The notes beneath the pieces were generated by a model. The model did not search any database, was not told where the DNA came from, and worked only from the letters and a program-made list of their open reading frames with translations. This document shows positions 1-13,067 of a stretch of 64,000 bases of DNA, one piece after another. Origin of the DNA: Streptomyces antimycoticus (lineage in GTDB: Bacteria; Actinomycetota; Actinomycetes; Streptomycetales; Streptomycetaceae). Position numbers and translations under genes: made by a program. Position 1 is the first letter of the stretch. Every line of letters starts with the position of its first letter. The DNA lies in assembly GCF_005405925.1 (NCBI RefSeq), contig NZ_BJHV01000001.1, positions 5,084,001 through 5,148,000 of the forward strand, written 5' to 3'.

Positions 1-1149
1 GGTCCAGTAGGTGTAGCTGATCTGGTGCTTCTTGAGGTAGTCCATCAGGGCGTTCTGCCACACGGCCTCGGAGCTCTTACCGGCGGTCTTCTTACCACCG
101 AACTCACCCATCAGCAGCGGGGCGATGTTCTGCTTCTTGATGTACGCCCAGTGCTTGTCCCAGATGGCCGGCATGTTCTTCGGGAAGTCCTTCGCCATGA
201 ACCAGTTCTGGTTGTAGACGCCCGGACCGTAGTCGTGGGCCGAGTAGACGACCTTGTTCGGCTCATTGAGCTTCACCGGGTGCTTCTTCACACCCTGGAG
301 GTCACCGCCCCACCAGAACTGCTCGTTCTTGTGGCGGTCCGTACCCTCGACGAAGATCAGCCAGTCCTTGTTGACCTTGTGGATGGCGTTACCGGCCTTG
401 GTGGCCGCGAGCTGCCAGTCCGTCTTCGGGTTGCCGTCGCCCCACGTGGCCTGGCCACGCGGCTCATTGTGGAGGTCGGCGCCGATCACCCGGTCGTTGT
501 TCTTGTAGCGCTTGGCCAGCTTGACCCAGTCGTCCAGCCACTGCTTCTCGGTGAGGCTCTGGGAGTACCACAGCTCACTCTGGCCGTACTGGTCCGGACG
601 GTGCTGGTCCAGGATCACGCGGATGCCGCGGTCGGTGGCACCCTTCACGATCTTGTCCATGATCTGCTGGGGAGTGAGGCCCTTCAGATCGGGGTTCTTG
701 TGCCAGTCGATGCCGTTGGGCTTGGCCGACGACTTGAACATCTCGTTCGCGTACGGCAGACGCATCGTGTTGAAGCCCTGCTTGGCCATCTGGTCCAGCA
801 TGGACTCCCAGTTACGGGTCCACAGGCCGTGCGGCGCGTAGGTGCCGGTCTCGAAACCGAACCAGTTCACACCGGTCAGGACGACCTTCTTGCCGTTGGC
901 GTCCACGATCTCGCTCTTCTTCGTGGACAGCGGGCCCTCGGCGCCCGCACCGGTGGCCTTGGCCCCGGCGGCGGAGGTGGTGGTGGCCGACTGGCCATCG
1001 GTGTTGTTCACCGCGAAAGCGGTGACAGTGCCACCCACGGCAGCAGCAGCGACGACGGCCGCGGCGATACCGAAGCGGAGACGCTGCGAGCGCGGCGCGC
1101 GCTTGGTCTCGGTGGTCGGGGCGTTGTTCTGGTCCATGGGGGAATTCAT
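1..1149 (-). CDS. GH5-family cellulase (endo-glucanase), 3' end outside the window
   Basis: Likely secreted beta-1,4-glucanase of glycoside hydrolase family 5. At least 383 residues are present and the C-terminus runs off the left edge. After a basic N-terminus there is one hydrophobic segment (about residues 25-47), which may be a signal peptide or an anchor, then an Ala/Ser/Thr/Gly-rich linker and the catalytic domain. The GH5 landmarks are visible: GVNWFGFET near the start of the barrel, the acid/base Glu in HNEPRG, YSAHDYGPGVY, and the nucleophile Glu in MGEFGGK. The ATG at 1149 has a CAGGAG site 8 bases upstream. This ATG overlaps the stop of the upstream receiver-domain gene (ATGA), so the two are translationally coupled. 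The family call is firm; substrate and attachment to the cell are inferred. Confidence 0.9.
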   Translation of the reverse strand, partial: MNSPMDQNNAPTTETKRAPRSQRLRFGIAAAVVAAAAVGGTVTAFAVNNTDGQSATTTSAAGAKATGAGAEGPLSTKKSEIVDANGKKVVLTGVNWFGFETGTYAPHGLWTRNWESMLDQMAKQGFNTMRLPYANEMFKSSAKPNGIDWHKNPDLKGLTPQQIMDKIVKGATDRGIRVILDQHRPDQYGQSELWYSQSLTEKQWLDDWVKLAKRYKNNDRVIGADLHNEPRGQATWGDGNPKTDWQLAATKAGNAIHKVNKDWLIFVEGTDRHKNEQFWWGGDLQGVKKHPVKLNEPNKVVYSAHDYGPGVYNQNWFMAKDFPKNMPAIWDKHWAYIKKQNIAPLLMGEFGGKKTAGKSSEAVWQNALMDYLKKHQISYTYWT

Positions 1150-1493
1150 TCGGTGATGCTCCTGAGGAATTCGGGTACTGCGGTCTTGAGGATGCTGGGG
1201 TTGTTCGTCGGAGATTCCAGACATTCCATCTGCGGGTCGGAGACTGCGGTCAGCCGGACAATCCGCGCGGACGGTAGGAGTTCGCCGATCAGGCGGACCA
1301 GCCGCTGCGTTTGCCGGCCGCGCTCATCCACGTCGATCAGCACCACATCCGGCTGCATGTGGTTGGCCAGAGAAATTGCTTCTCGGGCCGACCCTGCAAT
1401 TCCGGATAGCTCCAGTCCGGGCTCCTCGACAACGAGATCGGCGAGAGCACTCAACACCAGTGGGTGGTGCTCCACGACGAGAACTCTGTGCAT
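1146..1493 (-). CDS. Stand-alone response-regulator receiver (REC) domain protein
   Basis: A 115-residue protein that is only a receiver domain, with no DNA-binding or enzymatic output. It starts MHRVLVVEHHP, where the usual DD acidic pair is E8-H9. The phospho-acceptor position is D54 (in VVLIDVDE), the switch Thr is T82 (RLTA) and the conserved Lys is K103 (ILKT). The acidic pocket is therefore only partly kept. The ATG at 1493 has a GAAGGAG site at good spacing. Its stop overlaps the start of the GH5 cellulase gene by the ATGA arrangement, so both come from one transcript. The role is unknown; it could be a phosphorylation-dependent or pseudo-receiver partner controlling expression of the cellulase. 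Confidence 0.75.
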   Translation of the reverse strand: MHRVLVVEHHPLVLSALADLVVEEPGLELSGIAGSAREAISLANHMQPDVVLIDVDERGRQTQRLVRLIGELLPSARIVRLTAVSDPQMECLESPTNNPSILKTAVPEFLRSITE

Positions 1494-1798: not shown

Positions 1799-2872
1799 TC
1801 AGCGCGTCAGCCGGTACGCGTACCCGGGGAGGAACATGCCCGCACCGGCGGCACAGCCGTCCGCCTGCCCCGGCTGCTTGACCCACAGGAAGGCGTCGAT
1901 ACCGGGGATGCCGGTGGCGGCGGTGGGGGGCCTGCCCAGCTTGCGGCCCGGCGGGTCGCAGAAGCTGTGCTTCCGCGTGGGCCCCGCCCCATTGCGGCTG
2001 GTGTCCACCACGACCCCCAGCCGGGGCCGGCGCAGCTCCCTGATCACGGAGAGTCCGTAGCGCACCTCGTCGGCGGTGGCGTTGAAGTTGGAGACGTTGA
2101 CCGCTATCCCGTCCCCGTACCGCTCTATACCGGCCCGCCGCAGCCGATCGGCCATGGTGCGCGCGGGCTGCCATCCGGAGTTCCCGGCGTCGTAGTAGAC
2201 CCGGGCCCGTGGCGCCCCCCGCTGGAGCGCCCGCGCGGCGTACGACAGCGCCGCGAACCGCTCCGCCTGCTGCCGCCGCTTGAGACAGCTCATATGGGCC
2301 AGCGCGTCCGGTTCGAGGATGACGATGGCGCGCCCGTCCCCTATCCCCCGGGTGAGGGCCTCGCTCCAGCGCCCGTAGGCGGCCGTATCCCCGGCGCCGC
2401 CGGAGCTCAGCTGCTCGCAGTCGCGCTGCGGGATGGTGTACGGGACCAGCACCGGCAGCCGTCGCTGGGCGGCGGCGGTGCGGACCAGGGACCGGGTCCG
2501 CTCCTCGATCAGGGACTCATTGGTCTCGGTGAGCCAGGCGGCCTGGGGCTCGGCGGCGATCCGCTCGGCGATGGCCGACGCGCGCCGGTCGTGCGGATGG
2601 TCCCGCACCCAGGTCGCGGCCGGGTTGTGGGGGTCGGTGTAGAAGCGGGTCGTCGCCGGGAAGAACGGCTTGGCCACGGGGAGTGACGGCTTGCCGTTCG
2701 GCTGCCGCACCGGGCCCATGAACAGGGCCTGCACGGTGGTCGCCGCCATCACCACCTCCACCACCAGCACCATCACGATCAGCTGGGCGATGCCCCGCCC
2801 CGCCCACCTGGGCTTACGCCCGCCGGCCGGCGGGCGGGGGCGGCGGACGCGTGCGCACAGTTTCGTGATCAT
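1799..2872 (-). CDS. GH6-family cellulase (endoglucanase/cellobiohydrolase)
   Basis: A 357-residue glycoside hydrolase family 6 enzyme that should cleave beta-1,4-glucan with inversion. Residues 27-50 form one hydrophobic segment after a strongly basic N-terminus, so it is a signal-anchored or secreted protein. The GH6 motifs are in order: the Asp of PQRDC (D151), the proposed general acid D189 in ILEPDALAH, YYDAGNSGW, and the C-terminal signature DAFLWVKQPGQADG. No cellulose-binding module is present; the protein ends soon after the catalytic domain. It starts 18 bases after the stop of the degenerate subtilase gene on the same strand, which suggests one operon. The ribosome-binding site is weak. 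Family call firm, substrate inferred. Confidence 0.88.
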   Translation of the reverse strand: MITKLCARVRRPRPPAGGRKPRWAGRGIAQLIVMVLVVEVVMAATTVQALFMGPVRQPNGKPSLPVAKPFFPATTRFYTDPHNPAATWVRDHPHDRRASAIAERIAAEPQAAWLTETNESLIEERTRSLVRTAAAQRRLPVLVPYTIPQRDCEQLSSGGAGDTAAYGRWSEALTRGIGDGRAIVILEPDALAHMSCLKRRQQAERFAALSYAARALQRGAPRARVYYDAGNSGWQPARTMADRLRRAGIERYGDGIAVNVSNFNATADEVRYGLSVIRELRRPRLGVVVDTSRNGAGPTRKHSFCDPPGRKLGRPPTAATGIPGIDAFLWVKQPGQADGCAAGAGMFLPGYAYRLTR

Positions 2873-2890: not shown

Positions 2891-4075
2891 TCAGCCGTTG
2901 TGGGAGTTGTCGGGCGGGGGCCTGCGCCGGCTGATGAGCACCACCGCCAGCACCGCGAGCACCACCAGGACTCCGGCCACCACCCCTATCGTGACCAGCG
3001 CGGATTCATCCCCGTCGGTTTTGTCGTTGTCGGCGGAGGCGGCCGGGGTCGCGGCCGGATGGCGGCGGGGGGCGGAGAGCTCGGCGGAGGCCGGTGGTGC
3101 GGCCCGGTCCGCCAGCGCCTTGGCCGGGGCGATCACCCCGTATCCATAGCGCGGGTCATGGCCCGCGGAGCCCTTGCGGTCGGCGGTGTCGATCAGCTTC
3201 TGGACGACCTGGTTGGCGTTCCAGCGGGGGTGCTCCGAGCGCAGCAGCGCGGCGCCCGCCGCGACCCAGGGCGCCGCGAAGCCGGTGCCGTCGCCGGTCC
3301 AGTAGTCGCTGTTGCCGGAGGTGGTGAGGATGGAGACGCCGGGTGCGGCCAGGAGGGTCTTCCCACCGTGGTGGGAAGAGGTCCAGACGGCGCCCTTCTT
3401 GTCGGTGGCCACCACGGCGACCACCCCGGGAAGGGCGGCCGGGTAGGTGGGCTTGTTGCCCTCCTTGCCGTTGTCGCCCGCGCCGGCCACGATCACGGCG
3501 TCCTTGGCGACGGCGTACTTCACCGCGGACCGCAGCGCGGGGGTCGGACGCTTGAAGGAGACGGCCAGATCGATGACGCGGGCGCCCTGGCCGACCGCGT
3601 GGCGTATGGCCTTCGCGGTGGGGTCGGGGAGGGCCTTTCCGTCGCGGTAGACGCGGAGCGGCATCACCTTGGCCTGGGGCGCGAGGCCGTACACCCCGTC
3701 GCCGCGGTAATTGCGGCCGGTGCCGGCGATGATTCCGGCGGCATGGGTGGACTGCTCTGCCGCCTTGCCGCCGTCCCGGGTGCCGAAGCCGCCGGTGCCG
3801 CCCGCGAAATCCTTTCCGCGGACCACGCGCCCGCGCAGATCCGGATGTGTTGCGTCGACCCCGGTGCCGATGACCGCCACGGTCACTCCGGCACCTTTGC
3901 TGATTTTCCAGGCGCGTTCCGCTTTGAGCGCCGTCAGCGCCCATTCGGAATCGTGCAGCCCACCGGAATGGGAATCACTTGCCGCAGCCGGCGTGGCCAG
4001 TGCGAGCGTCATCGCTGCGATGACCGCTCCGGCCCGGCCGGCGAATGGATGGCGTGACATCACGTGACCTGACAT
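2891..4075 (-). CDS. Subtilisin/mycosin-like S8 membrane protein lacking the catalytic triad (pseudoprotease)
   Basis: A 394-residue protein with the layout of type VII secretion mycosins: signal peptide (about 15-33), S8 subtilase domain (about 45-330), disordered linker, one C-terminal transmembrane helix (about 362-384) and a basic tail. All catalytic positions are replaced. The Asp motif reads VIGTGVD (Gly at 70 where DTG is expected), the His motif reads EQSTHAAG (Gln at 108 where HGTH is expected), and the Ser motif reads GTGFAAPW (Gly at 265 where GTSMAAP is expected). The oxyanion Asn position reads AGAGDNG. I checked these codons on the reverse strand. The fold seems intact, so this is a conserved-looking inactive paralogue rather than a decaying gene. 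No ESX/type VII genes are nearby. It may bind rather than cut a substrate. A second in-frame ATG lies at codon 6. Confidence 0.85.
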   Translation of the reverse strand: MSGHVMSRHPFAGRAGAVIAAMTLALATPAAASDSHSGGLHDSEWALTALKAERAWKISKGAGVTVAVIGTGVDATHPDLRGRVVRGKDFAGGTGGFGTRDGGKAAEQSTHAAGIIAGTGRNYRGDGVYGLAPQAKVMPLRVYRDGKALPDPTAKAIRHAVGQGARVIDLAVSFKRPTPALRSAVKYAVAKDAVIVAGAGDNGKEGNKPTYPAALPGVVAVVATDKKGAVWTSSHHGGKTLLAAPGVSILTTSGNSDYWTGDGTGFAAPWVAAGAALLRSEHPRWNANQVVQKLIDTADRKGSAGHDPRYGYGVIAPAKALADRAAPPASAELSAPRRHPAATPAASADNDKTDGDESALVTIGVVAGVLVVLAVLAVVLISRRRPPPDNSHNG

Positions 4076-4353
4076 TACGTCACCTACTCTCTTCGCACGG
4101 GACGCAAGGCCGTCGGGCCCATTTCATCTTGGGCATCCCCCGCAGGTACTGACACCCGCGAGAGGGTGAGCGACCCGTCCCTTCTTTGGGGGACCGGTCG
4201 GGATACCCGAGACCCGGCTCTCCCCAATACGGGGGAGCGGAGGGGTCCGCCGAAGGTGTACTACCCGCTCCCCCGGTCGCGGGTACTACCTCCTTTTCGG
4301 GTGACGCACTCTTGGGTCAACGGCGATAAGAGCCTCCTGTCGAGGGAGTCGCG

Positions 4354-4863
4354 ATGCAGCGTTTCCGAACGTTCAGCGAGCGCACCGGAGAGCCGGACGA
4401 AGAGGCGGATACCTCCGCCGGCAACGCCCGTAAGCGGACCGGAATGCTTTTCCGAGCCCTCCCGGTCCGGAACCCGATGGCCGGTATGCCCGGGCTGGCC
4501 CTTCGGTTCGCGGTCGTCGGCGGGGGCGGTGTGCTCGTGAACACGGTGGTCCTCTTCGTTCTCTATCACTGGGTCGGACTTCCGCTCCTGGCGGCGTCGG
4601 CGATAGCGGTGGAACTGGCCGTGGTGCACAACTATCTGCTGAACGACCGATGGACCTTCGCGGTCGGCACCCCGTCCCTCCGTCGATTCATCAAGTTCAA
4701 TATCTCGGTCCTGGGCGGACTCGGGGTCAATGTGCTCATCGTCTGGTCACTGGTGCGCGGGGGAACGCATCTGCTGCTGGCGAATTGCCTCGGCATCGCG
4801 GCGGCTTTCGCGGTCAACTTCGCGTCGAGTACCGGATGGGTCTGGGGGAGGCGGAGCCGATGA
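4354..4863 (+). CDS. GtrA-family membrane protein
   Basis: A 169-residue protein with a polar N-terminus (about 45 residues) and four predicted transmembrane helices, matching the GtrA family. GtrA proteins are thought to move polyprenyl-phosphate-linked sugars across the membrane or to support glycosyltransferases that use them. Typical features are the Gly-rich first helix (RFAVVGGGGVLVNT), HNYLLNDRWTF after helix 2, and FASSTGWVW near the end. The ATG has a GAGGGAG site upstream. Its stop overlaps the start of the GT2 gene (ATGA). The divergent 4076-4353 gap upstream carries a GTACTACC direct repeat (4258 and 4283) that may mark a control site. First gene of a four-gene operon. Confidence 0.85.
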   Translation: MQRFRTFSERTGEPDEEADTSAGNARKRTGMLFRALPVRNPMAGMPGLALRFAVVGGGGVLVNTVVLFVLYHWVGLPLLAASAIAVELAVVHNYLLNDRWTFAVGTPSLRRFIKFNISVLGGLGVNVLIVWSLVRGGTHLLLANCLGIAAAFAVNFASSTGWVWGRRSR

Positions 4864-6155
4864 TTGTCGCCATCATCTACATGGTGCTGATCGTGGTCTC
4901 GATTCTGCTCACCGTGCAGTCGGCCCACGTCCTCTACCTCATGCTCTACACCTGGGACCGGGCGGATGCCGAACGGAAGGCCAGGGCGCCGGATGAATTC
5001 CTGCCGCCCCAGATCTCCTTCAGTGTCCTGCTGCCCGCCCGGCATGAGGAAGACGTCATCCAGAACACCATCGAGCGCGTGGTGCGGGCCAACTATCCGG
5101 CCGAACTGCTGGAGGTCTTCGTGATCTGCTCACAGGACGACGACGGCACGATCAAAAAGGCCGAGGAGAAGATCGACGAGCTGAAGCGGGAAGGGCTGCG
5201 CAACGTGCGGGTCGTGGTGTTCGACGACAAGCCGGTCAACAAGCCGCACGGCCTCAACACGGCCCTTCCGCACACCGCCAACAAGGTGGTGACGATCTTC
5301 GACGCGGAGGACGACATCCATCCGGAGATCTTCAGCCTGGTGAACACCGTAATGGTGCAGGAGAAGGTCAGAGTGGTCCAGGCCGGTGTGCAGCTGATGA
5401 ACTACGAGTCCAACTGGTACTCGACGCTCAACGTCCTGGAGTACTTCTTCTGGTTCAAGAGCCGGCTGCACTACCACGCCCACCACGGCTCGATCCCGCT
5501 CGGCGGGAACACCGTCTTCTTCGCCCGTGAACTGCTGCTGCGGCTCGGCGGCTGGGACGACCGCAACCTCACCGAGGACGCCGACATGGGCCTGCGGATA
5601 TCCGCCATGGGCGAGCGGGTGCGCGTCGTCTATGACGACCGGTATGTGACCAAGGAGGAGACCCCGCCGACCCTCGGCCACTTCATCCGGCAGCGCACCC
5701 GCTGGAGCCAGGGCTTTATACAGACCCTGAAGAAGGGCACGTGGAAGAAGATGCCGACGCGCAAACAGCGCTGGCTCGCCTTCTACGTCCTGGTGTTCCC
5801 GCGCGGACAGGCGCTGCTCGGCCTCTATCTGCCGATCTCGCTCGGCATGATCCTCATCCTCAAGGTGCCGGTGCTGATCGCGCTCTGCTCGTATCTGCCC
5901 GTATTGCTGCTGGCCGCGCACTTTCTGGTCCAGGCGGTCGGTCTGTACGAGTTCACCGGCGCCCATGGCCTCGAAGCCTCGCCCAAAGCCCTCATGCGCA
6001 TGGCCATCGCCTGGTTCCCCTTTCAGATGGTCCTCGCGTACGCCGCGCTGCGGGCCATGCGGCGCGAGATGCTCGGCCGCCACGACTGGGAGAAGACACA
6101 GCACGTAGGCGCCCACCGGGCCACCACCGAGGAGGCGGAGTCGCGTGTCGGATAA
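4860..6155 (+). CDS. Processive family 2 glycosyltransferase (GT2), membrane bound
   Basis: A 431-residue inverting glycosyltransferase of the cellulose/chitin/hyaluronan-synthase type. One N-terminal helix (about 3-29) precedes a cytosolic GT-A domain, and two or more C-terminal helices follow (about 305-395). The processive-GT2 motifs are present: SVLLPARHEED, the metal-binding DAEDD (148-152), TED (238-240) and QRTRW (278-282). There is no PilZ domain, so no sign of direct c-di-GMP control. The start is the ATG at 4860 overlapping the GtrA stop; an upstream extension in the same frame would read through the GtrA gene and is not believed. The likely product is a surface polysaccharide, type unknown. 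The nearby GH5 and GH6 genes make a beta-glucan attractive, but this is inference. Confidence 0.87.
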   Translation: MIVAIIYMVLIVVSILLTVQSAHVLYLMLYTWDRADAERKARAPDEFLPPQISFSVLLPARHEEDVIQNTIERVVRANYPAELLEVFVICSQDDDGTIKKAEEKIDELKREGLRNVRVVVFDDKPVNKPHGLNTALPHTANKVVTIFDAEDDIHPEIFSLVNTVMVQEKVRVVQAGVQLMNYESNWYSTLNVLEYFFWFKSRLHYHAHHGSIPLGGNTVFFARELLLRLGGWDDRNLTEDADMGLRISAMGERVRVVYDDRYVTKEETPPTLGHFIRQRTRWSQGFIQTLKKGTWKKMPTRKQRWLAFYVLVFPRGQALLGLYLPISLGMILILKVPVLIALCSYLPVLLLAAHFLVQAVGLYEFTGAHGLEASPKALMRMAIAWFPFQMVLAYAALRAMRREMLGRHDWEKTQHVGAHRATTEEAESRVG

Positions 6156-8193
6156 CACCACGCCCTCGCGGTCGGCGCCCGTCGACTCGGAAGGCCGGAA
6201 GACCGCGGCGGACAAGGAGACCGCGCCCAACAGGAGCACCACGCCGCCGGACAAGAGCACCGCACCGGACGAGAAGACCGCACCAGACAAGAACACCGTA
6301 CCGGGCAAGAAGACCGTGGCGGCCAAGAGCGCCACGCCAGGCAAGAAGACCGTGGCGGCCAAGAGCACCGCACCAGACAAGAAGACCGCACCGAACAAGA
6401 GCACCGCACCAGACAAGAAGACCGTGGCGGCCAAGAGCACCGCACCAGACAAGAAGACCGCACCGAACAAGAGCACCGCACCAGACAAGAAGACCGTGGC
6501 GGCCAAGAGCACCACGCCAGGCAAGAAGACCGTGGCGGCCAAGAACGCCAAGGTCCCCGCGCGGCGTCCGCGTCGCGGCCCGCGGTTCTCCGTGGCGCGC
6601 GGCTGGTTCCCCCCGCTGGGGACCAAGGGCAAGATCGCCCTGGTCGTCTCCCTGCTGACCGGCGTGCTCACCCACGGCTACCACCTGTTCCGCTACCCCC
6701 TCTACCTCACCGACGAGGGCATCTATATGCAGCGGGCGTGGTCGGTGCTGCGGGAGACCAGCCTGTCCCCGTACACCTACGACTACGACCACGCCCCGCT
6801 GGGCTGGATCACCCTGGCCGGCTGGGCCTTTCCGCTGCCGAAGCAGTTCGAGACCTTCGGGACCGCAATCAACACCGGACGATTTCTGATGCTGCTGGTG
6901 CATATCGCCAGCGTCTATCTGTTGTTCGAGATCGCCCGGCGGCTGTCCGGCAGTGTGCTGGCCGCCACCGTCACCGCGTTCCTCTTCAACGTCTCGCCGA
7001 TCGCGGTCTACTTCCAGCGGCAGGTCCTGCTGGACAACCTGATGATCTTCTGGCTGCTGCTGAGCCTGTTCATGCTGCTCCGCCGGGAAGTCACGATCAG
7101 AGCGGTGTTCGGCGGCGGGGTGGCGCTGGGGATGGCCCTGATCACCAAGGAGAACGCGATCTTCTTCGTGCCGACCTTCATGTATCTGCTCTACCGAAGA
7201 ATCAAGGGATCGCCCAGCCATCGGTTCACCAGGACCCTTTGGCCATTCGCCGCGCTCAGCCCGATCGGCGCATATGTGACCTACGCACTGCTCAAGAACG
7301 AGCTGCTGCCGAGCGGATTCGACTTCGATCTGAACAATCCGCCCGCTGACCACGTCTCGCTGCTCTACACCCTGTGGTGGCAGCTCAACCGTAACCAGGG
7401 CACCCTCTTCAGCCACACCGGACTGCTTCAGACCAGCTGGCTGGTGCGGGACAAGGTCCTCCTGATCGCCGGGGTGTGCGCGATGGTGATCTGCCTGTGG
7501 ATCGGCGTGCGGAACCGCAGGCGCAACCTGGGCTTTCTGGTCGCCGGAACGCTGGCCTTCGGATACGCCTTCTATCTGGTGCGCGGCAGCGTGGTGCTGG
7601 ACTTCTACGTCACGCCGCTGATCCCGATGTTCGCGCTCAATGTCGGCATGGTCACGGACCGGTTGCTCAAGGGCTCGTTCGCCAGTCGGTTCATGCGTGG
7701 TGCCCATTCCATGACCCGGGTCGCCGTGCCGTCGTTCGTCGCCATTCTGCTCCTGGCGTCACCGGCCTCCGGATATCTCGTCCACACCAATACCGAGGGC
7801 CGTACGCAGATTGCCGACCAGTACCAGTCCAAGATCAACCTCACCGGAATGCAGCATGCTCAGATCGCCTGGGTACGCAAGCACGTTCCGCCGAATTCGC
7901 GCATCGTCATGGACGACGACCTGTGGAGTCAGCTGCACGATATCCGCCCGTTCTACCCGTACGCGCACTCCCACTGGAACGCCTCGTCCGACCCGGATGT
8001 CCGCGACAAACTGTTCAAGAAGAAATGGCAGTACGTGGACTACATCATCATGTCGAACAAGATGCGCAGATCCATGATGCTCAACAATGGCGACGGCCGA
8101 GAGAACTGGATTCTCAAGGCGCTGCAAAATTCCACCCGCGTCTGGTCGATGACCCGGGGCAATATCAAGCTGGAAATCTACCGTGTGCAGTAG
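6145..8193 (+). CDS. GT39-like (PMT/ArnT-type) GT-C glycosyltransferase with Lys-rich repeat tail
   Basis: A 682-residue multi-pass protein. Residues about 20-150 are a low-complexity tail rich in Lys, Thr, Pro and Ala (repeats such as KKTVAAKSTAPD), strongly positive and by topology cytosolic. The first transmembrane helix begins near residue 163. The first outer loop carries YLTDEG (D190, E191), the position of the catalytic acidic pair in GT-C enzymes, followed by YDHAPLGW. About ten more helices and a C-terminal outer domain follow. Such enzymes move a sugar from a polyprenyl-phosphate carrier to a protein, lipid or glycan. GTG start with GAGGAGGCGGAG upstream; the gene overlaps the GT2 gene by 11 bases. 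The acceptor is unknown. Confidence 0.82.
   Translation: MSDNTTPSRSAPVDSEGRKTAADKETAPNRSTTPPDKSTAPDEKTAPDKNTVPGKKTVAAKSATPGKKTVAAKSTAPDKKTAPNKSTAPDKKTVAAKSTAPDKKTAPNKSTAPDKKTVAAKSTTPGKKTVAAKNAKVPARRPRRGPRFSVARGWFPPLGTKGKIALVVSLLTGVLTHGYHLFRYPLYLTDEGIYMQRAWSVLRETSLSPYTYDYDHAPLGWITLAGWAFPLPKQFETFGTAINTGRFLMLLVHIASVYLLFEIARRLSGSVLAATVTAFLFNVSPIAVYFQRQVLLDNLMIFWLLLSLFMLLRREVTIRAVFGGGVALGMALITKENAIFFVPTFMYLLYRRIKGSPSHRFTRTLWPFAALSPIGAYVTYALLKNELLPSGFDFDLNNPPADHVSLLYTLWWQLNRNQGTLFSHTGLLQTSWLVRDKVLLIAGVCAMVICLWIGVRNRRRNLGFLVAGTLAFGYAFYLVRGSVVLDFYVTPLIPMFALNVGMVTDRLLKGSFASRFMRGAHSMTRVAVPSFVAILLLASPASGYLVHTNTEGRTQIADQYQSKINLTGMQHAQIAWVRKHVPPNSRIVMDDDLWSQLHDIRPFYPYAHSHWNASSDPDVRDKLFKKKWQYVDYIIMSNKMRRSMMLNNGDGRENWILKALQNSTRVWSMTRGNIKLEIYRVQ
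6367..6510 (+). repeat. Two perfect 72-bp direct repeats inside the GT-C gene tail
   Basis: 6367-6438 and 6439-6510 are identical by reading and encode the Lys-rich repeat. Shorter related pieces (GACAAGAAGACC and GTGGCGGCCAAGA) extend the array from about 6290 to 6545. Such repeats can change copy number by slippage or recombination while keeping the frame, so tail length may vary between strains. Confidence 0.85.
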
Positions 8194-8217
8194 CCATGGG
8201 AAGAGGAGGTGAAGGCC

Positions 8218-9882
8218 ATGCCTGAGTACGACGACGACTGGGATGTTCGGGAGGACAGGGATGATCCCGAGAACGAGGAGGAAATCCCCGACGAGGAGGA
8301 AATCCCCGAGGAGGACGACGTCTCCGAGGAAGACGGTATCTCCGACGAAGACGACATCCTCGAGGAAGAGGAGATTCCCGAGGAAGAGGACGTCTCCGAT
8401 GAGGACGACATCCTCGAGGAAGAGGAAATCCCCGAGGAAGAGGAAATCCCCGAGGAGGAAAGCCCCCTCGCCGAGGAGAACCTCCCCCACCAGAAGAACA
8501 CCCTCGACGAGGAGAACACCCCCGACGGTGACAAGAAGAAAAAGCTCACCTGGAAGACCGCCCTGCTCGCTCTCGTGGTCTTCGCGATCATAGGATCGCT
8601 CGTCCAGGTGGTCGCGCGCGGCGGCTTCGGAGGCGCCCTGAACACCACCGGCGGCGGAGGCGGGGGCGCCCCGCCGAAGAAGGAGCACTCCCGGCAGGAG
8701 CAGGAGATACGCCCGCCCAAGCAGCCCAAGACCATCAAGCTGGGCAACCAGCGGGTCCCCCAGGCATCCGGCCCGATCATCGTGATCAACCCGGGCCTGG
8801 TGAACCCCGGCGGCAGCGCCGCGGTCGAGGGCGGTGGCTTCGACAAGAAGGCCACGGTGGACATCCTGCTCAAGGTCCGGAAGTCGGACACCAAGGGCCG
8901 CGCCATCGGCAGTGTGCGCTCGGACAAGTCCGGATCGATCTACGCCCGGTTCACCATGCCCGAGAGCGCGGGCAACCGGCCCGCGACCCTGGTCGCCCAG
9001 CAGCGCGGCAGCACCAAGACGGCGGAGGCCAAGGTGATCACCGGTGGCGCCGTCGGCACCGCGAAGATCAACAAGTTGGTCGGCCGCCCCGGCGACGTGG
9101 TGACGGTCAACGCCCGCGGCTTCCGCCCGGGTGAGACCATCGACGTCTTCTGGGGACGGACCACCGGCACCCCCGTCACCACGCTGCACACCGACAGCAG
9201 CGGCAGCGTCGCCCATGCGGCGATCAAGGTGGGCGTGGCCCCGACCGGCTCCAGCACCCTGGTCCTGGTGGGCAAGCGCAGCAAGACCACGGCCACCGCG
9301 CCCTTCCAGATGCTGGCCATGTACCCCTCGATGAAGTCCAAGCCGTACGCGCTCAAGGCCGGTCAGCGGATCACGCTGTCCGCCAACAAGTTCGCGCCCG
9401 GCGAACGGGTGCTGGTCTACATCAACTCCACCGGCGGTCTGCCGGCCTTCACCGCCCAGGCGAACGCCATGGGGCAGATCCGCGACGTGGCGTTCAACGT
9501 GCCCTTCGGCCTCAAGGGGCGGCAGACGCTGATGGCGATCGGCGACCAGAGCCGGGCCGTGGTCCGCTCCGGCTTCACCGTGCTGCCGTACACCCCGTCC
9601 GCCGAGCCCAGCGCCTTCGGCGGCAGGGCGGGCACCACGCTCAGCTTCTATGTCGCGGGGTTCGCCCCGGGCGAGACGGTGACCGCCTACGCCGGGTCGG
9701 GCTCGAAGGGCCAGCGCAAGATCGGGACCTTCCAGGTGGACAGCCGGGGCAAGGCGTCGGCCGTGGGCTCGTACAAGATCACCACGGCGGACGAGAGCGG
9801 TGTGGCCTTCCAGCTCATCGGCCAGAAGAGCGGTGGCATCGCGAAGGCGAGCATCAACATGTCCCAGGGACGCGGAGATTAG
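8218..9882 (+). CDS. Single-pass membrane protein with acidic cytosolic tail and Ig-like extracellular repeats
   Basis: A 554-residue protein I cannot name. Residues 1-104 are almost all Glu and Asp, with a repeated EEIPEEE / EDDVSDEDD pattern. A KKKK stop-transfer patch leads into one transmembrane helix (about 112-132), then a Gly-rich linker and about four beta-sandwich repeats of roughly 85 residues (VNPGGSAAVEGGGF, GRPGDVVTVNARGF, LKAGQRITLSANKF, GRAGTTLSFYVAGF), which look like IPT/TIG or other Ig-like domains. The start chosen is the ATG at 8218, because GAGGAGGTGA directly before it is a near-perfect ribosome-binding site. It follows the GT-C gene by 24 bases. Likely a surface receptor, anchor or scaffold for the glycan system. 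Confidence 0.8.
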   Translation: MPEYDDDWDVREDRDDPENEEEIPDEEEIPEEDDVSEEDGISDEDDILEEEEIPEEEDVSDEDDILEEEEIPEEEEIPEEESPLAEENLPHQKNTLDEENTPDGDKKKKLTWKTALLALVVFAIIGSLVQVVARGGFGGALNTTGGGGGGAPPKKEHSRQEQEIRPPKQPKTIKLGNQRVPQASGPIIVINPGLVNPGGSAAVEGGGFDKKATVDILLKVRKSDTKGRAIGSVRSDKSGSIYARFTMPESAGNRPATLVAQQRGSTKTAEAKVITGGAVGTAKINKLVGRPGDVVTVNARGFRPGETIDVFWGRTTGTPVTTLHTDSSGSVAHAAIKVGVAPTGSSTLVLVGKRSKTTATAPFQMLAMYPSMKSKPYALKAGQRITLSANKFAPGERVLVYINSTGGLPAFTAQANAMGQIRDVAFNVPFGLKGRQTLMAIGDQSRAVVRSGFTVLPYTPSAEPSAFGGRAGTTLSFYVAGFAPGETVTAYAGSGSKGQRKIGTFQVDSRGKASAVGSYKITTADESGVAFQLIGQKSGGIAKASINMSQGRGD

Positions 9883-10039: not shown

Positions 10040-10471
10040 ATGAGCGTAGTTTTCGGCCCTAACTCACGAAGAGTCCTACAATTCCTTACCCATATCGAGG
10101 ACCTCTCCCCAGAGGAAATCGACCGGGTGGCCGATCTGTGGAAGCAGACGTCCAGCCAGACCCGCGCCGAGGGCTGGGCAGTGGTCCATCGCACCACCAC
10201 GCCCGAGGAGCGGTACCGCATCCTGGTCGCCGCCTCGGTGGCGCGCCGGGCCGCCCTGGACACCGCGCGGAACCACCAGAGACACGACTGGGCCTTCTGG
10301 GCCGCGGTGTGGGACGCCGCGACGGCGGTCGCCGTATGCGACCGCATCGGAAGCCACTACAACGTGCTGGTCGCGCCACTGGCCGCGGTCATGCCCTCGC
10401 TGGCGCACTGCCGGCGCGACGAATTCAGCATCCGCGAACTGCAGGGTGCCATCCTCAAGGGAGGTGGGTAG
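10040..10471 (+). CDS. Small alpha-helical protein of unknown function, coupled to a hybrid kinase
   Basis: A 143-residue soluble protein with no family I recognise. It is mostly helical, with DLSPEEIDRVADLW near the start, a His/Arg/Trp-rich middle (NHQRHDWAFW) and an Ala-rich stretch. It has no signal peptide and no transmembrane helix. The ATG has GGAG 8 bases upstream. Its stop lies 2 bases before the ATG of the REC-PAS-PAS kinase gene, so it is very probably co-translated with that kinase and may be its input or regulatory partner. Helices with scattered His could suggest a ligand- or metal-binding bundle, but no motif proves it. Confidence 0.7.
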   Translation: MSVVFGPNSRRVLQFLTHIEDLSPEEIDRVADLWKQTSSQTRAEGWAVVHRTTTPEERYRILVAASVARRAALDTARNHQRHDWAFWAAVWDAATAVAVCDRIGSHYNVLVAPLAAVMPSLAHCRRDEFSIRELQGAILKGGG

Positions 10472-10473
10472 TG

Positions 10474-12381
10474 ATGGGCGACAACCGGATCGATGTTGTG
10501 GTGGCCGATGACGACCCGGCCGTCCGGGAGGCGCTCGCCGACCTCATCGACTCCCACCCCGACCTGGAACTCGTGGGCCTGGCCATCAACCATGAGCAGG
10601 CCGTGCGCGCGGCGGTGGACCACCGCCCCCGGGTCGTGATCATGGACGTGCACATGCCCCGGGGCGACGCCCCCAGCAGCGTCCGGGCCATCCGCGACCA
10701 GGTCCCTGGCGCCCGGGTGGTGGCGCTGTCCGCCCACGGCGAACGCGAGACCGTGCTGAACATGCTCGCCGTCGGGGCCAGCGGCTATCTGGTCAAGGGC
10801 ACCCCCGCCGAGGAGATCCTCGAGGCGATCATCCGGGCCGCCCGCGATCAGTTCAGCATGTCCGTGGAGCTCCTCGCGGACTGCGCCGAGCCGCTGCGCC
10901 GCGCCGAGCGCGCCTCCTGGCGGTTCGAGGACCTGGTCGGCAACCGCCTGGAGGACTCGTTCCTGGAGCTGCTCGGCCACGCGCCGTGCGGCGTCCTGAT
11001 CGTCGGCCCCCGCGGCCGGATCGAGTACGCCAACGCCCACACCCGGCACATGTTCGGCTACAGCTCGGCGGAGCTGCGCGACAAGCGGCTGCGGGACCTC
11101 GTCCCCGAGCGCTACCGCACCGCCTCCGAACAGTTGATCGGCAGGGTCTTCACCGCGCCGTCGGTGATGAGCGGCCGCCGTCGCGACGGCACCGAGTTCC
11201 CCGCCCAGTTCAGCGGCGGCCATCTGCAGGGCCGACAGCCCCGCGGGGTGGTCTTCATCGCCGACCTGAGCCAGCTGCGGGCGGCCGAGAGCCGGTTCCG
11301 CCAGCTCATCGAGTCCTCCCCGGACGCGATGCTGATCGTGGACACCAGCGGCCGGATCCAGGCGGCCAACAACCGCACCGAGGCGCTCTTCGGCTACGAC
11401 CGCGACCATCTGATCGGCCGGGCCGTGGAGGCGCTCCTGCCCGACCAGCCGCTCACCGTCTCGCTGCGCGAATGGGACGACAGCCTGGAGGAGCCGGTGG
11501 GTCACAGCATGGAGCTGGTGGGCCGGCGCAGCGACGCCAAGCAGTTCCCAGCCGACGTCAGCATCAGCCCGCTGCGTACGGAGGAGGGCCTGCTCACCGT
11601 CCTGACCATCCGGGACATCACCGAGGTGCAGCGCGCCCAGTTCGTCCTGGAGCGCAGCCTGGAGCTGCTGGAGGTCACCGACCGCGACCGCCAGGCGCTG
11701 CTCAGCCATCTGGTCCACGCCCAGGAGGCCGAGCGGGGGCGGATCGCCGCCGACATCCACGACGACACCATCCAGGTGATCACCGCGGCCAGCCTCCGCC
11801 TCCAGCAGCTGCGCCGGCGGTTGCGGGACCCGGACGAGCAGCGGGTGATGGACAAGCTGGACGAGACCCTGAAGCTCTCGCTCAGCCGGCTGCGGCAGCT
11901 CATCTTCGACCTGCGGCCGTCCAGCCTGGAACACGGCTGCCTGGCCGGGGCGCTGCGCGGCCTGCTGGAGCAGATACGTACCGAGACCGGTATCACCTAC
12001 CGGCTGGAGGACCGGCTCACGGCTCATCCCCCGGCCCAGACGATGGCGCTGATCTACCGGACCGCCCAGGAGGCGCTGGTGAACGTGCGCAAGCACGCCC
12101 ACGCCAAGACGGTCCACGTACAGCTCCTCGGGCTCGACGACGGCTGCCTGGTGCGGATCGTCGACGACGGCGACGGCTACAACCCGCTCGAGGTGGAGTC
12201 CCGCCCCGGCCACCTCGGGCTCTCCCTGATCCAGGAGCGGGCCCAGATCGCGGGCGGCTGGTGCCGGATCGAGAGCGAACCCGGCTCCGGCACCACCGTG
12301 GAGTTCTGGGTGCCGCTCGGCGCTCCCCCGGACGCGTCGCCCGACCCCGCCGACTCCCCCGAAGGGGACCCACAGCCGTGA
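10474..12381 (+). CDS. REC-PAS-PAS-histidine kinase (NarX/DesK-type kinase core)
   Basis: A 635-residue cytosolic kinase. Order of domains: receiver (1-125, phospho-acceptor D58 in VVIMDVHMP, K108), PAS 1 (about 165-270), PAS 2 (about 285-395), HisKA_3 dimerisation helix with phospho-acceptor H429 in ADIHDDTIQ, and HATPase (about 520-610; DDGDGYN and GHLGLSLIQERA as the nucleotide boxes). An N-terminal receiver on a HisKA_3 kinase is unusual, since such receivers normally carry an HTH output; it suggests feedback or cross-regulation from another kinase. The ATG is preceded by GGGAGGTGG. Its stop overlaps the GTG start of the response regulator gene. No transmembrane helix, so the signal is sensed inside the cell, perhaps by PAS-bound cofactor. 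Confidence 0.88.
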   Translation: MGDNRIDVVVADDDPAVREALADLIDSHPDLELVGLAINHEQAVRAAVDHRPRVVIMDVHMPRGDAPSSVRAIRDQVPGARVVALSAHGERETVLNMLAVGASGYLVKGTPAEEILEAIIRAARDQFSMSVELLADCAEPLRRAERASWRFEDLVGNRLEDSFLELLGHAPCGVLIVGPRGRIEYANAHTRHMFGYSSAELRDKRLRDLVPERYRTASEQLIGRVFTAPSVMSGRRRDGTEFPAQFSGGHLQGRQPRGVVFIADLSQLRAAESRFRQLIESSPDAMLIVDTSGRIQAANNRTEALFGYDRDHLIGRAVEALLPDQPLTVSLREWDDSLEEPVGHSMELVGRRSDAKQFPADVSISPLRTEEGLLTVLTIRDITEVQRAQFVLERSLELLEVTDRDRQALLSHLVHAQEAERGRIAADIHDDTIQVITAASLRLQQLRRRLRDPDEQRVMDKLDETLKLSLSRLRQLIFDLRPSSLEHGCLAGALRGLLEQIRTETGITYRLEDRLTAHPPAQTMALIYRTAQEALVNVRKHAHAKTVHVQLLGLDDGCLVRIVDDGDGYNPLEVESRPGHLGLSLIQERAQIAGGWCRIESEPGSGTTVEFWVPLGAPPDASPDPADSPEGDPQP

Positions 12382-13067
12382 CCGCACCTCCCGAACTGAC
12401 GAAGGTGCTGATCGTCGAGGACCACCGGGTGGTGGCCGAGGGGCTGTGGGCCCTGCTGGCCGAGTACTCGGATCTGACGGTGGTCGGCTGGGCGGACTCG
12501 GTCGCCGAGACCGTGCCCATGGCCAAGGAGCTCAAGCCCGATGTGGCCCTGGTCGACTTCCGGCTGCCGGATGGCACCGGGGCCGACGCGGCGGCCGGCA
12601 TACGGGCCCATGACCCCTCCGTCGCCATCGTGATCCTCAGCGCCGACGCCAGCGACTCGGCGCTGCTGGCCGCGGTGGAGGCGGGCGCCTGCGGCTATCT
12701 GCTGAAGTCGGCGAGCGGCGACGAGATCGCGGCCGCCATCCGCTCGGCCGCCGAGGGCGAGACCCTCATCCCGGCCAGCACCCTGGTGGAGGTGCTGGCA
12801 CGGCACCGCGAGGACGCGCGGTCCACCGCCGAGCAGACCGAGCGCCTGGACAGCATGACCCCGCGTGAGCAGGAGATCCTCACACTGATGAGCCAGGGCC
12901 TGGACAACCGGGCCGTCGCGGAGCGGCTGAGCATCAGCTACGCCACCGTGCGCACGCATGTGCGCAGGATCCTGGAGAAGCTGGACGCGCGCTCACAGCT
13001 GGAGGCGGTCGCGAGGGCCGCCGAATTCGGCTTCAAGCCCGCGCAGCCGGAGGGGCCGGAGGAGTGA
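12378..13067 (+). CDS. NarL/FixJ-family response regulator
   Basis: A 229-residue response regulator: receiver domain (phospho-acceptor D60 in VALVDFRLPDG) and a C-terminal LuxR-type HTH (about 155-215; LTPREQEIL-like SMTPREQEILTLM, then SYATVRTHVRRILEKL). GTG start overlapping the kinase stop (GTGA), which marks it as the cognate partner of the REC-PAS-PAS kinase. Last gene of a three-gene operon. Target promoters cannot be read from the window. Confidence 0.92.
   Translation: MTAPPELTKVLIVEDHRVVAEGLWALLAEYSDLTVVGWADSVAETVPMAKELKPDVALVDFRLPDGTGADAAAGIRAHDPSVAIVILSADASDSALLAAVEAGACGYLLKSASGDEIAAAIRSAAEGETLIPASTLVEVLARHREDARSTAEQTERLDSMTPREQEILTLMSQGLDNRAVAERLSISYATVRTHVRRILEKLDARSQLEAVARAAEFGFKPAQPEGPEE

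What the first reader, a model, noticed from the sequence alone, without database searches (positions are those of the whole stretch)
2891..4075. Subtilisin/mycosin homologue with all three catalytic residues replaced
The Asp, His and Ser positions of the S8 triad are Gly70, Gln108 and Gly265, and the oxyanion Asn position is also altered, but the flanking motifs, signal peptide and C-terminal anchor are intact. Losing all three residues while keeping the frame and fold points to a selected pseudoprotease. It is paired with a GH6 cellulase gene 18 bases downstream and is not near type VII secretion genes. It may act as a receptor or inhibitor.
Basis: partly seen in the sequence, partly recalled or inferred. 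Interest (0 to 1): 0.72.

Follow-up and report, generated by a model that had tools for sequence, protein, structure and literature searches.

The report
Dead protease wired to polysaccharide genes
A group of Streptomyces keeps a membrane-anchored subtilisin-like protein whose protease active site is gone, beside genes that look made for building and trimming an outer sugar polymer, so an old protease shape has probably been reused as a structural or binding part of that machinery.

Summary
The gene at 2891-4075 (minus strand, 394 aa) encodes a subtilisin-fold protein with a C-terminal anchor and with Gly70, Gln108 and Gly265 at the Asp/His/Ser positions and Asp201 at the oxyanion Asn. It is not decay or a sequencing error. 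Of 121 proteins compared (window protein plus 120 listed hits of 491), 51 form one clade: Gly at the Asp position in 51, Gln at the His position in 49, Ser at the Ser position in none, Asp at the oxyanion position in 50. dN/dS among close relatives resembles that of the neighbouring hydrolases. In 392 Streptomyces genomes the cluster's GT2 synthase orthologue occurs in 16; all 16 carry the pseudoprotease beside GtrA, GT2 and GH5, and GH6 is recognisable in 15. Ten sister GT2 clusters (about 43% identical) have a galactose-oxidase-like gene and no detected S8 homologue; none of the 16 pseudoprotease clusters matches that gene. I infer that the pseudomycosin is the extracytoplasmic partner of the GT2 synthase, the part GlxA or BcsB plays for cellulose synthases. 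Shown: pseudoprotease, constraint, linkage. Inferred: role. Lectin, receptor and inhibitor roles stay open.

The parts
2891..4075 (-). Pseudomycosin: secreted, tail-anchored subtilisin-fold protein without catalytic triad, 394 aa
3866..3868 (-). Gly70 codon at the catalytic Asp position; Gly in 51 of 51 clade members
   Evidence: coordinates computed from the ORF
3752..3754 (-). Gln108 codon at the catalytic His position; Gln in 49 of 51
   Evidence: coordinates computed from the ORF
3473..3475 (-). Asp201 codon at the oxyanion Asn position; Asp in 50 of 51
   Evidence: coordinates computed from the ORF
3281..3283 (-). Gly265 codon at the catalytic Ser position; G 25, A 16, Q 7, T 1, M 1, D 1 of 51
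   Evidence: coordinates computed from the ORF
3977..4075 (-). signal-peptide-like N-terminus (approximate end); the fold starts at about residue 39, so there is no room for a classical prodomain
   Evidence: sequence reading; (model residue 39 aligns with mature subtilisin residue 1)
2933..2989 (-). C-terminal transmembrane helix (residues 363-381), with basic RRR a few residues after it
1799..2872 (-). GH6 glucanase with N-terminal hydrophobic segment; IPQRDC and LEPDA motifs present
1146..1493 (-). small response-regulator-like protein (PF00072, 29.9 bits, just under the cut-off of 30.2)
1..1224 (-). GH5 cellulase, cut by the window edge, with N-terminal hydrophobic segment; NEP and GEF motifs present
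4076..4353 (.). divergent intergenic region, largely conserved in the violaceusniger-type rows compared (6 of 7 rows; L040 diverged); may hold both promoters (inference)
4354..4863 (+). GtrA-family membrane protein
4860..6155 (+). GT2 synthase with DAED, TED and QRTRW (QxxRW) motifs and hydrophobic segments; probably processive (inference)
6145..8193 (+). PMT/GT39-like polytopic glycosyltransferase with a repetitive N-terminus
8209..9882 (+). protein with acidic N-terminus and one TM segment, weak Ig-like (PGS) similarity (NF058592, below cut-off); no Pfam family at E 0.001
10138..12381 (+). response regulator-PAS-PAS-histidine kinase ORF (true start probably later), next to the cluster

Best explanation
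This is a mycosin-like subtilase that has lost proteolysis and been kept as a non-catalytic, outward-facing part of a larger machine. The protein has an export signal by eye, is predicted to fold as a complete subtilisin domain, leaves no room for a prodomain, and has one C-terminal membrane helix (sequence and model). It lies in one conserved cluster with a GT2 polysaccharide synthase, a GtrA protein, a GT39-like transferase and two glucanases with N-terminal hydrophobic segments (linkage shown; co-expression inferred). Most likely it docks on the GT2 synthase by its tail helix and ectodomain, stabilises the machine and receives the emerging glycan, with the old active-site region and its nearby tryptophans as a binding surface (inferred). 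In that reading it fills the place that the galactose-oxidase-like protein fills in the sister GT2 clusters, that GlxA fills for CslA, and that BcsB fills for BcsA. Confidence: pseudoprotease under selection about 0.97; functional part of the GT2 cluster about 0.8; synthase partner rather than another role in that cluster about 0.45. The score given is for the last step.
Against: No direct evidence of binding, complex formation, expression or polymer. The pseudoprotease is divergent from GT2 and sits in an operon-like pair with GH6, so it could serve the hydrolases instead. The 8209-9882 Ig-like protein, on the GT2 strand, is an equally placed candidate for the GlxA-like partner. The sister sample is small (10 of 143 genomes with only sister-type hits), chosen by score, in stretches of 19 kb, and only two galactose-oxidase-like proteins were used as queries. 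Three genomes hold both GT2 types (G097, G177, G367), so any exchange is per cluster, not per genome. dN/dS against the five most distant orthologues rises to 0.44-0.58 (dS 0.72-0.83, so rough). The GT2's best solved-structure match is a family 2 transferase (6yv7, E 4e-13), cellulose synthase only second. The polymer is unknown; GH5+GH6 only suggest a beta-1,4-glucan.
Confidence: 0.45

Rival explanations
1. The pseudoprotease is a glycan-binding or sensing protein (lectin or receptor) of the envelope, not a synthase subunit. The dead cleft binds polymer or a breakdown product, and the signal reaches the response-regulator-like or PAS-kinase genes at either side.
For: Clade-specific Trp259 and Trp270 (51 of 51) and Trp285 (50 of 51), the first two on either side of the old Ser in sequence. 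Regulator-like genes lie on both flanks, and matches to both recur in the relatives. A CspC pseudoprotease is a proposed germinant receptor in C. difficile (PMC6636752, passages).
Against: No cytoplasmic signalling domain and only a short tail.
Confidence: 0.25
2. It is a chaperone, inhibitor or docking factor for a partner enzyme: for the adjacent GH6 or GH5, or for an active mycosin in trans.
For: Operon-like arrangement with GH6, 18 bases apart. Intact S8 paralogues exist in the genome. In C. difficile the CspA pseudoprotease controls incorporation or stability of CspC (PMC6636752, passages).
Against: L083 keeps the pseudoprotease while only a 30-residue GH6 match remains. The 6 carriers among 150 genomes all have it in the GT2 cluster. 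No propeptide-like inhibitor domain is present.
Confidence: 0.17
3. It has a new, non-proteolytic catalytic activity built in the old cleft.
For: Replacement residues are near-invariant (Gly70, Gln108, Asp201) rather than random, and polar residues near the motifs are conserved: His111 in 45 of 51, His235 in 46 of 51.
Against: The old Ser position varies (G, A, Q, T, M, D), which is unlike an active centre. There is no cysteine in the window protein. No search for metal or cofactor motifs was made.
Confidence: 0.06
4. It is a decaying gene or a sequencing error.
For: None beyond the loss of the triad itself.
Against: The same state in 51 of 51 clade proteins and 19 of 19 loci from different assemblies, open frames throughout, dN/dS similar to that of neighbouring hydrolases.
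Confidence: 0.01
5. It is an ordinary type VII secretion mycosin that works without its protease activity in an ESX system.
For: Best named family is TIGR03921, T7SS mycosin, at 266 bits. M. marinum MycP1 is needed for secretion without its protease activity (PMC5082899).
Against: Below that family's cut-off (278.75 bits). The only EccB found in the genome lies 2.2 Mb away, and three S8 paralogues with intact triads start 0.1 to 16 kb after it.
Confidence: 0.03

Closest known systems
Type VII secretion mycosins (MycP, NCBIfam TIGR03921)
   Same: Signal peptide, subtilisin domain, C-terminal membrane anchor; best-scoring named family. Mycosins are described as tail-anchored with N-terminal signal peptides (PMC10924467, passages) and have a protease-independent structural role (PMC5082899, abstract and section 6).
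   Different: Score 266.1 below the 278.75 cut-off; triad and oxyanion Asn all replaced; not beside ESX genes; linked to a polysaccharide cluster.
Csp pseudoproteases CspC and CspA of Clostridioides difficile (S8)
   Same: Bacterial subtilisin-fold proteins that lost triad residues and were kept for a non-proteolytic function (PMC6636752, passages).
   Different: CspC keeps the Asp (D105) and its prodomain, and has a jelly-roll insert; it is soluble, in spores. Here all three residues plus the oxyanion Asn are replaced, there is no room for a prodomain, and the protein has a membrane anchor.
GlxA of the CslA-GlxA-CslZ cellulose system of Streptomyces
   Same: Anchored, extracytoplasmic protein encoded with a GT2 synthase and a GH6 glucanase (PMC11022532, passages and Discussion; PMC9040799, passages); proposed functional counterpart. 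Galactose-oxidase-like genes occupy the sister GT2 clusters.
   Different: Unrelated fold; GlxA is a copper radical oxidase. The window has no match to the two galactose-oxidase-like queries anywhere in its 64 kb.
BcsB of bacterial cellulose synthase
   Same: Partner whose C-terminal TM anchor helps stabilise the synthase channel (PMC11022532, Discussion).
   Different: No homology seen; the role here is inferred only.

Membership tests
Peptidase family S8 (Pfam PF00082) by homology | Match above the gathering score over the domain | tested here: met
   136.6 bits against 21.8, profile 1-288 of 288
Peptidase family S8 (Pfam PF00082) by homology | Subtilisin fold | tested here: met
Active S8 peptidase | Asp/His/Ser triad and oxyanion Asn | tested here: not met
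   Gly70, Gln108, Gly265, Asp201
T7SS mycosin (TIGR03921, equivalog) | Score above curated cut-off | tested here: not met
   266.1 against 278.75 bits
T7SS mycosin (TIGR03921, equivalog) | Encoded in an ESX locus | tested here: not met
   Only EccB match of the genome at C1:7321757, about 2.2 Mb away
T7SS mycosin (TIGR03921, equivalog) | C-terminal TM anchor | tested here: met
   TM 363-381, helix 359-383
T7SS mycosin (TIGR03921, equivalog) | N-terminal signal peptide | tested here: inconclusive
   read by eye only; the hydropathy threshold marks no N-terminal segment in this protein
S8 pseudoprotease as a conserved family | Triad lost in a whole clade under purifying selection | tested here: met
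   51 of 51 proteins, one clade at SH-aLRT 98, median dN/dS 0.34 in 11 close loci
Synthase partner like GlxA or BcsB | Constant linkage to the synthase gene | tested here: met
   16 of 16 GT2-orthologue genomes
Synthase partner like GlxA or BcsB | Physical complex with the synthase and need for polymer synthesis | not testable with these tools
   needs biochemistry and genetics
GlxA by homology | GlxA / galactose-oxidase-like domains | tested here: not met
   Pfam shows only Peptidase_S8, whereas the GlxA of this genome has PF21110, PF09118 and Kelch

The most novel reading that the evidence does not exclude
A secreted protease fold has been recruited, with loss of its whole catalytic apparatus, as the obligate extracytoplasmic subunit of a cellulose-synthase-like machine. 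It stands where a sister lineage of GT2 clusters has a copper-radical-oxidase-like subunit, so polysaccharide synthases can swap structurally unrelated partners. The metagenomic relative P0054 keeps the triad but already has the clade's Trp259, Trp270 and Trp285 and has lost the oxyanion Asn, which would place the new binding role before the loss of catalysis (one sequence on a long branch).
Probability: 0.35. Interest if true: 0.8.

Novelty: new variant of a known kind. Interest (0 to 1): 0.6.

Why it matters
The Csp proteins of Clostridioides difficile are a studied case of bacterial subtilisin-type pseudoproteases. This one is tied to a defined polysaccharide cluster in Streptomyces, a genetically workable genus, so the question of what a dead protease does can be tested directly by deletion, pull-down and polymer assay. 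If the partner role holds, it shows that the accessory subunit of glycan synthases is replaceable by proteins of unrelated fold, and it gives a natural counterpart to the protease-independent role of mycosins in type VII secretion. It also warns that source labels such as 'S8 family serine peptidase' and 'type VII secretion-associated serine protease mycosin' mislead for this clade.

Tried and rejected
Rejected: decay or sequencing error. Rejected: member of an ESX locus. Rejected: role that needs GH6, because L083 keeps the pseudoprotease with only a 30-residue GH6 match. Checked and found ordinary: all 10 weaker S8 hits of the 150-genome search (L013-L022) have D/H/S/N. One search read six of them on the wrong strand; one search repeated those six correctly. 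Five further loci (L030-L034) are also intact; L035 and L036 were not read. L029 was left out of the triad count because its contig ends inside the gene. L074, L075 and L078 are the same contigs as L025, L028 and L023 and were not counted twice. Relatives of P0054 in other genera of the family (L107-L109) have ordinary triads and no match to the other cluster proteins. The DNA context of P0054 itself was not found. P0052, P0053, P0055, P0056 and P0061 were dropped from the tree (long proteins or a fragment). These five and P0054 are outside both groups: four read D/H/S, P0061 is a fragment showing only the Ser, and P0054 has D/H/S with Glu at the oxyanion position. The dN/dS medians leave out pairs with dS of 0.05 or less (53 of 55 pairs kept for the pseudoprotease). 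One search tested 13 of the 16 clusters for the galactose-oxidase-like gene, made while checking this report, added the other three (L078 only 11 kb) and four more stretches (L024, L026, L027 and L043, the last being part of the window's own locus), all without a match. A second pseudomycosin type (P0022, P0028, P0032) could not be placed because those genome searches did not complete. No chain named as a mycosin appeared among the rows shown; that absence says nothing. Literature: searches cover an open-licence PMC library only, and I saw titles and starts of abstracts of the rows listed (20 of 51, 20 of 41, 5 of 5, 10 of 20, 2 of 2, 6 of 6, 0 of 0, 10 of 139). None of the listed rows is about this clade. 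'mycosin' with 'cellulose synth' gave 0 papers.

Full report
What is there. The window lies in an 11.17-Mb genome (three contigs). The closest named relatives with this gene are Streptomyces niphimycinicus, S. endocoffeicus, S. antioxidans, S. violaceusniger, S. rugosispiralis, S. iranensis and S. sabulosicollis (87-98% identity); I call these the violaceusniger type. The gene runs on the minus strand from 4075 to 2891 and encodes 394 residues. Pfam gives Peptidase_S8 across the whole profile. The alignments to AK.1 protease and thermitase place Gly70, Gln108 and Gly265 on the Asp, His and Ser of the triad, and Asp201 on the oxyanion Asn.

Conservation. The protein search reported 491 proteins and listed 120; the other 371 were not seen. 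Of the 120 plus the window protein, P0001-P0051 share the dead site. Counts over these 51: Gly 51 at the Asp position; Gln 49, Pro 1 and Thr 1 at the His position; Asp 50 and Ala 1 at the oxyanion Asn; Gly 25, Ala 16, Gln 7, Thr 1, Met 1 and Asp 1 at the Ser position. All 64 active-clade proteins in the same count have D, H, N and S; P0052-P0056 and P0061 were left out of that count. Read directly from DNA, 19 of 19 loci, window included, show Gly/Gln/(Gly 16, Ala 3)/Asp. Six S8 paralogues in the same genome are intact. In a quick tree of 128 rows the 57 dead rows are one side of a branch (SH-aLRT 98). P0054, a protein with the triad intact, is next to them (98), but its branch is long (0.87), so its place is unsure. 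P0054 already has Trp259, Trp270 and Trp285 of the dead clade, has Glu at the oxyanion position, and lacks the clade's Phe174, His111 and His235.

Selection. Among 11 close loci the median dN/dS is 0.34 for the pseudoprotease, 0.33 for GH6, GH5 and GtrA, 0.16 for GT2, 0.32 for the Ig-like protein and 0.42 for the GT39-like protein (Nei-Gojobori). Strong GC bias makes these values rough, but the dead protein is held about as firmly as the hydrolases beside it. Over 14 violaceusniger-type loci the fold domain (0.30) is held more firmly than the linker (0.54). Against the five most distant orthologues the window's ratio is 0.44-0.58, with dS 0.72-0.83.

Neighbourhood. In the window the order is GH5, a small response-regulator-like gene, GH6 and the pseudoprotease (all minus), then GtrA, GT2, a GT39-like transferase, an Ig-like protein with one TM segment and a PAS histidine kinase (all plus). 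GT2 has the DAED, TED and QxxRW motifs of processive synthases (motif knowledge recalled); its best solved-structure match is a family 2 transferase (6yv7, E 4e-13), followed by cellulose synthase (E 3e-8). GT2 at 78% identity or more occurs in 16 of 392 Streptomyces genomes searched, with a clear gap to the next hits at 45%. The regions around all 16 were read: all 16 have the pseudoprotease, GtrA and GH5. GH6 is recognisable in 15, one of these (L080) aligning only in two pieces; the sixteenth (L083) has a 30-residue match. In the 150 genomes searched with the protease itself, the dead form occurs in 6, and these 6 handles are GT2 carriers; the 10 other hits are intact.

Partner exchange. 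The nearest GT2 relatives found are not the other GT2s of this genome (four of the eight tried match, at 25-33% over partial alignments) but a sister group at 42-45%. Ten sister clusters were read in 19-kb stretches: ten of the fifteen best-scoring sister hits, of 143 genomes with only such hits. All ten have GT2 and a PMT39 match, none has a match to the pseudoprotease, GH6 or GH5 at E 1e-3, and all ten have a galactose-oxidase-like gene (Pfam domains read for two of the ten). None of the 16 pseudoprotease clusters, including the whole 64-kb window, has a match to that gene at E 1e-5 (13, three). The two queries used limit this test. In Streptomyces the CslA synthase works with GlxA, a radical copper oxidase, and with the GH6 enzyme CslZ (PMC11022532, passages and Discussion; PMC9040799, passages). 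BcsB is described there as stabilising the glucan channel of BcsA through its C-terminal TM anchor. The pseudoprotease has a similar architecture and similar gene company.

Not a secretion mycosin. It scores below the mycosin model's cut-off (266 against 278.75). The one EccB gene found in the genome lies at 7.32 Mb, with three intact S8 paralogues starting 0.1 to 16 kb downstream of it; the window lies at 5.08-5.15 Mb. The relevant precedent is functional: M. marinum MycP1 is needed for secretion but its protease activity is not, and mycosins stabilise the membrane complex while only loosely associated with it (PMC5082899, abstract and section 6).

Mechanism. I favour a synthase-partner role: exported, tail-anchored, docked at the GT2, giving stability and a path or binding surface to the emerging glycan, which GH5 and GH6 then trim. 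Shown: dead site, predicted fold, anchor, constraint, linkage, and at cluster level the alternation with the galactose-oxidase-like gene. Inferred: docking, polymer type, binding in the cleft. The Ig-like protein is an equally placed candidate for the partner, and the pseudoprotease could instead sense or bind glycan.

Novelty. S8 homologues without catalytic residues are known in general: a 2008 survey counted 42 inactive homologues among 966 serine proteases of five families (PMC2605481, passages), and CspC and CspA are studied (PMC6636752, passages). A mycosin-like clade with all four catalytic positions replaced, tied to a GT2 cluster, was not among the rows listed by the searches named, which cover an open-licence library only. 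I call it a new variant of a known kind.

Noticed in passing
L112:7050-10172 (G000:C1, about 4.28 Mb): This genome has GlxA (PF21110) and a convergent GH6 lipoprotein-like gene (CslZ-like), but no ORF called in the 7 kb upstream of glxA, where cslA is expected, matches the window GT2; the next upstream gene is a GntR-type regulator.
   Followed up: partly
L125:6718-9585 (G000:C1, about 2.626 Mb): Another GT2 gene (PF13632) convergent with a GH6 lipoprotein-like gene in the same genome, a possible further glucan system.
   Followed up: no
L083:12349-12438: Only a 30-residue GH6 match remains between an intact pseudoprotease and GH5: apparent loss of GH6 with retention of the pseudoprotease.
   Followed up: partly
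window 6145-6600: The N-terminus of the GT39-like protein is a long run of degenerate KKTVAAKSTAPDKKTAPNKS-type repeats that seems to vary between orthologues; long antisense ORFs overlap it.
   Followed up: no
proteins P0022/P0024 (S. canus) and P0027/P0028 (S. dysideae): Two different dead pseudomycosins per species name, the S. canus pair on contigs of identical length (51862), suggesting a duplicated pseudoprotease; genome searches for the second type did not complete.
   Followed up: partly
L026:9231-10300 and 11659-12886: In the S. violaceusniger NBRC 13459 contig GH6 and GH5 each align in separate pieces in different frames while the pseudoprotease is intact; assembly frameshift or real decay not decided.
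   Followed up: no
window 4076-4353: The divergent intergenic region is largely conserved in six of the seven rows aligned (L040 diverged), suggesting shared regulation of both arms.
   Followed up: partly
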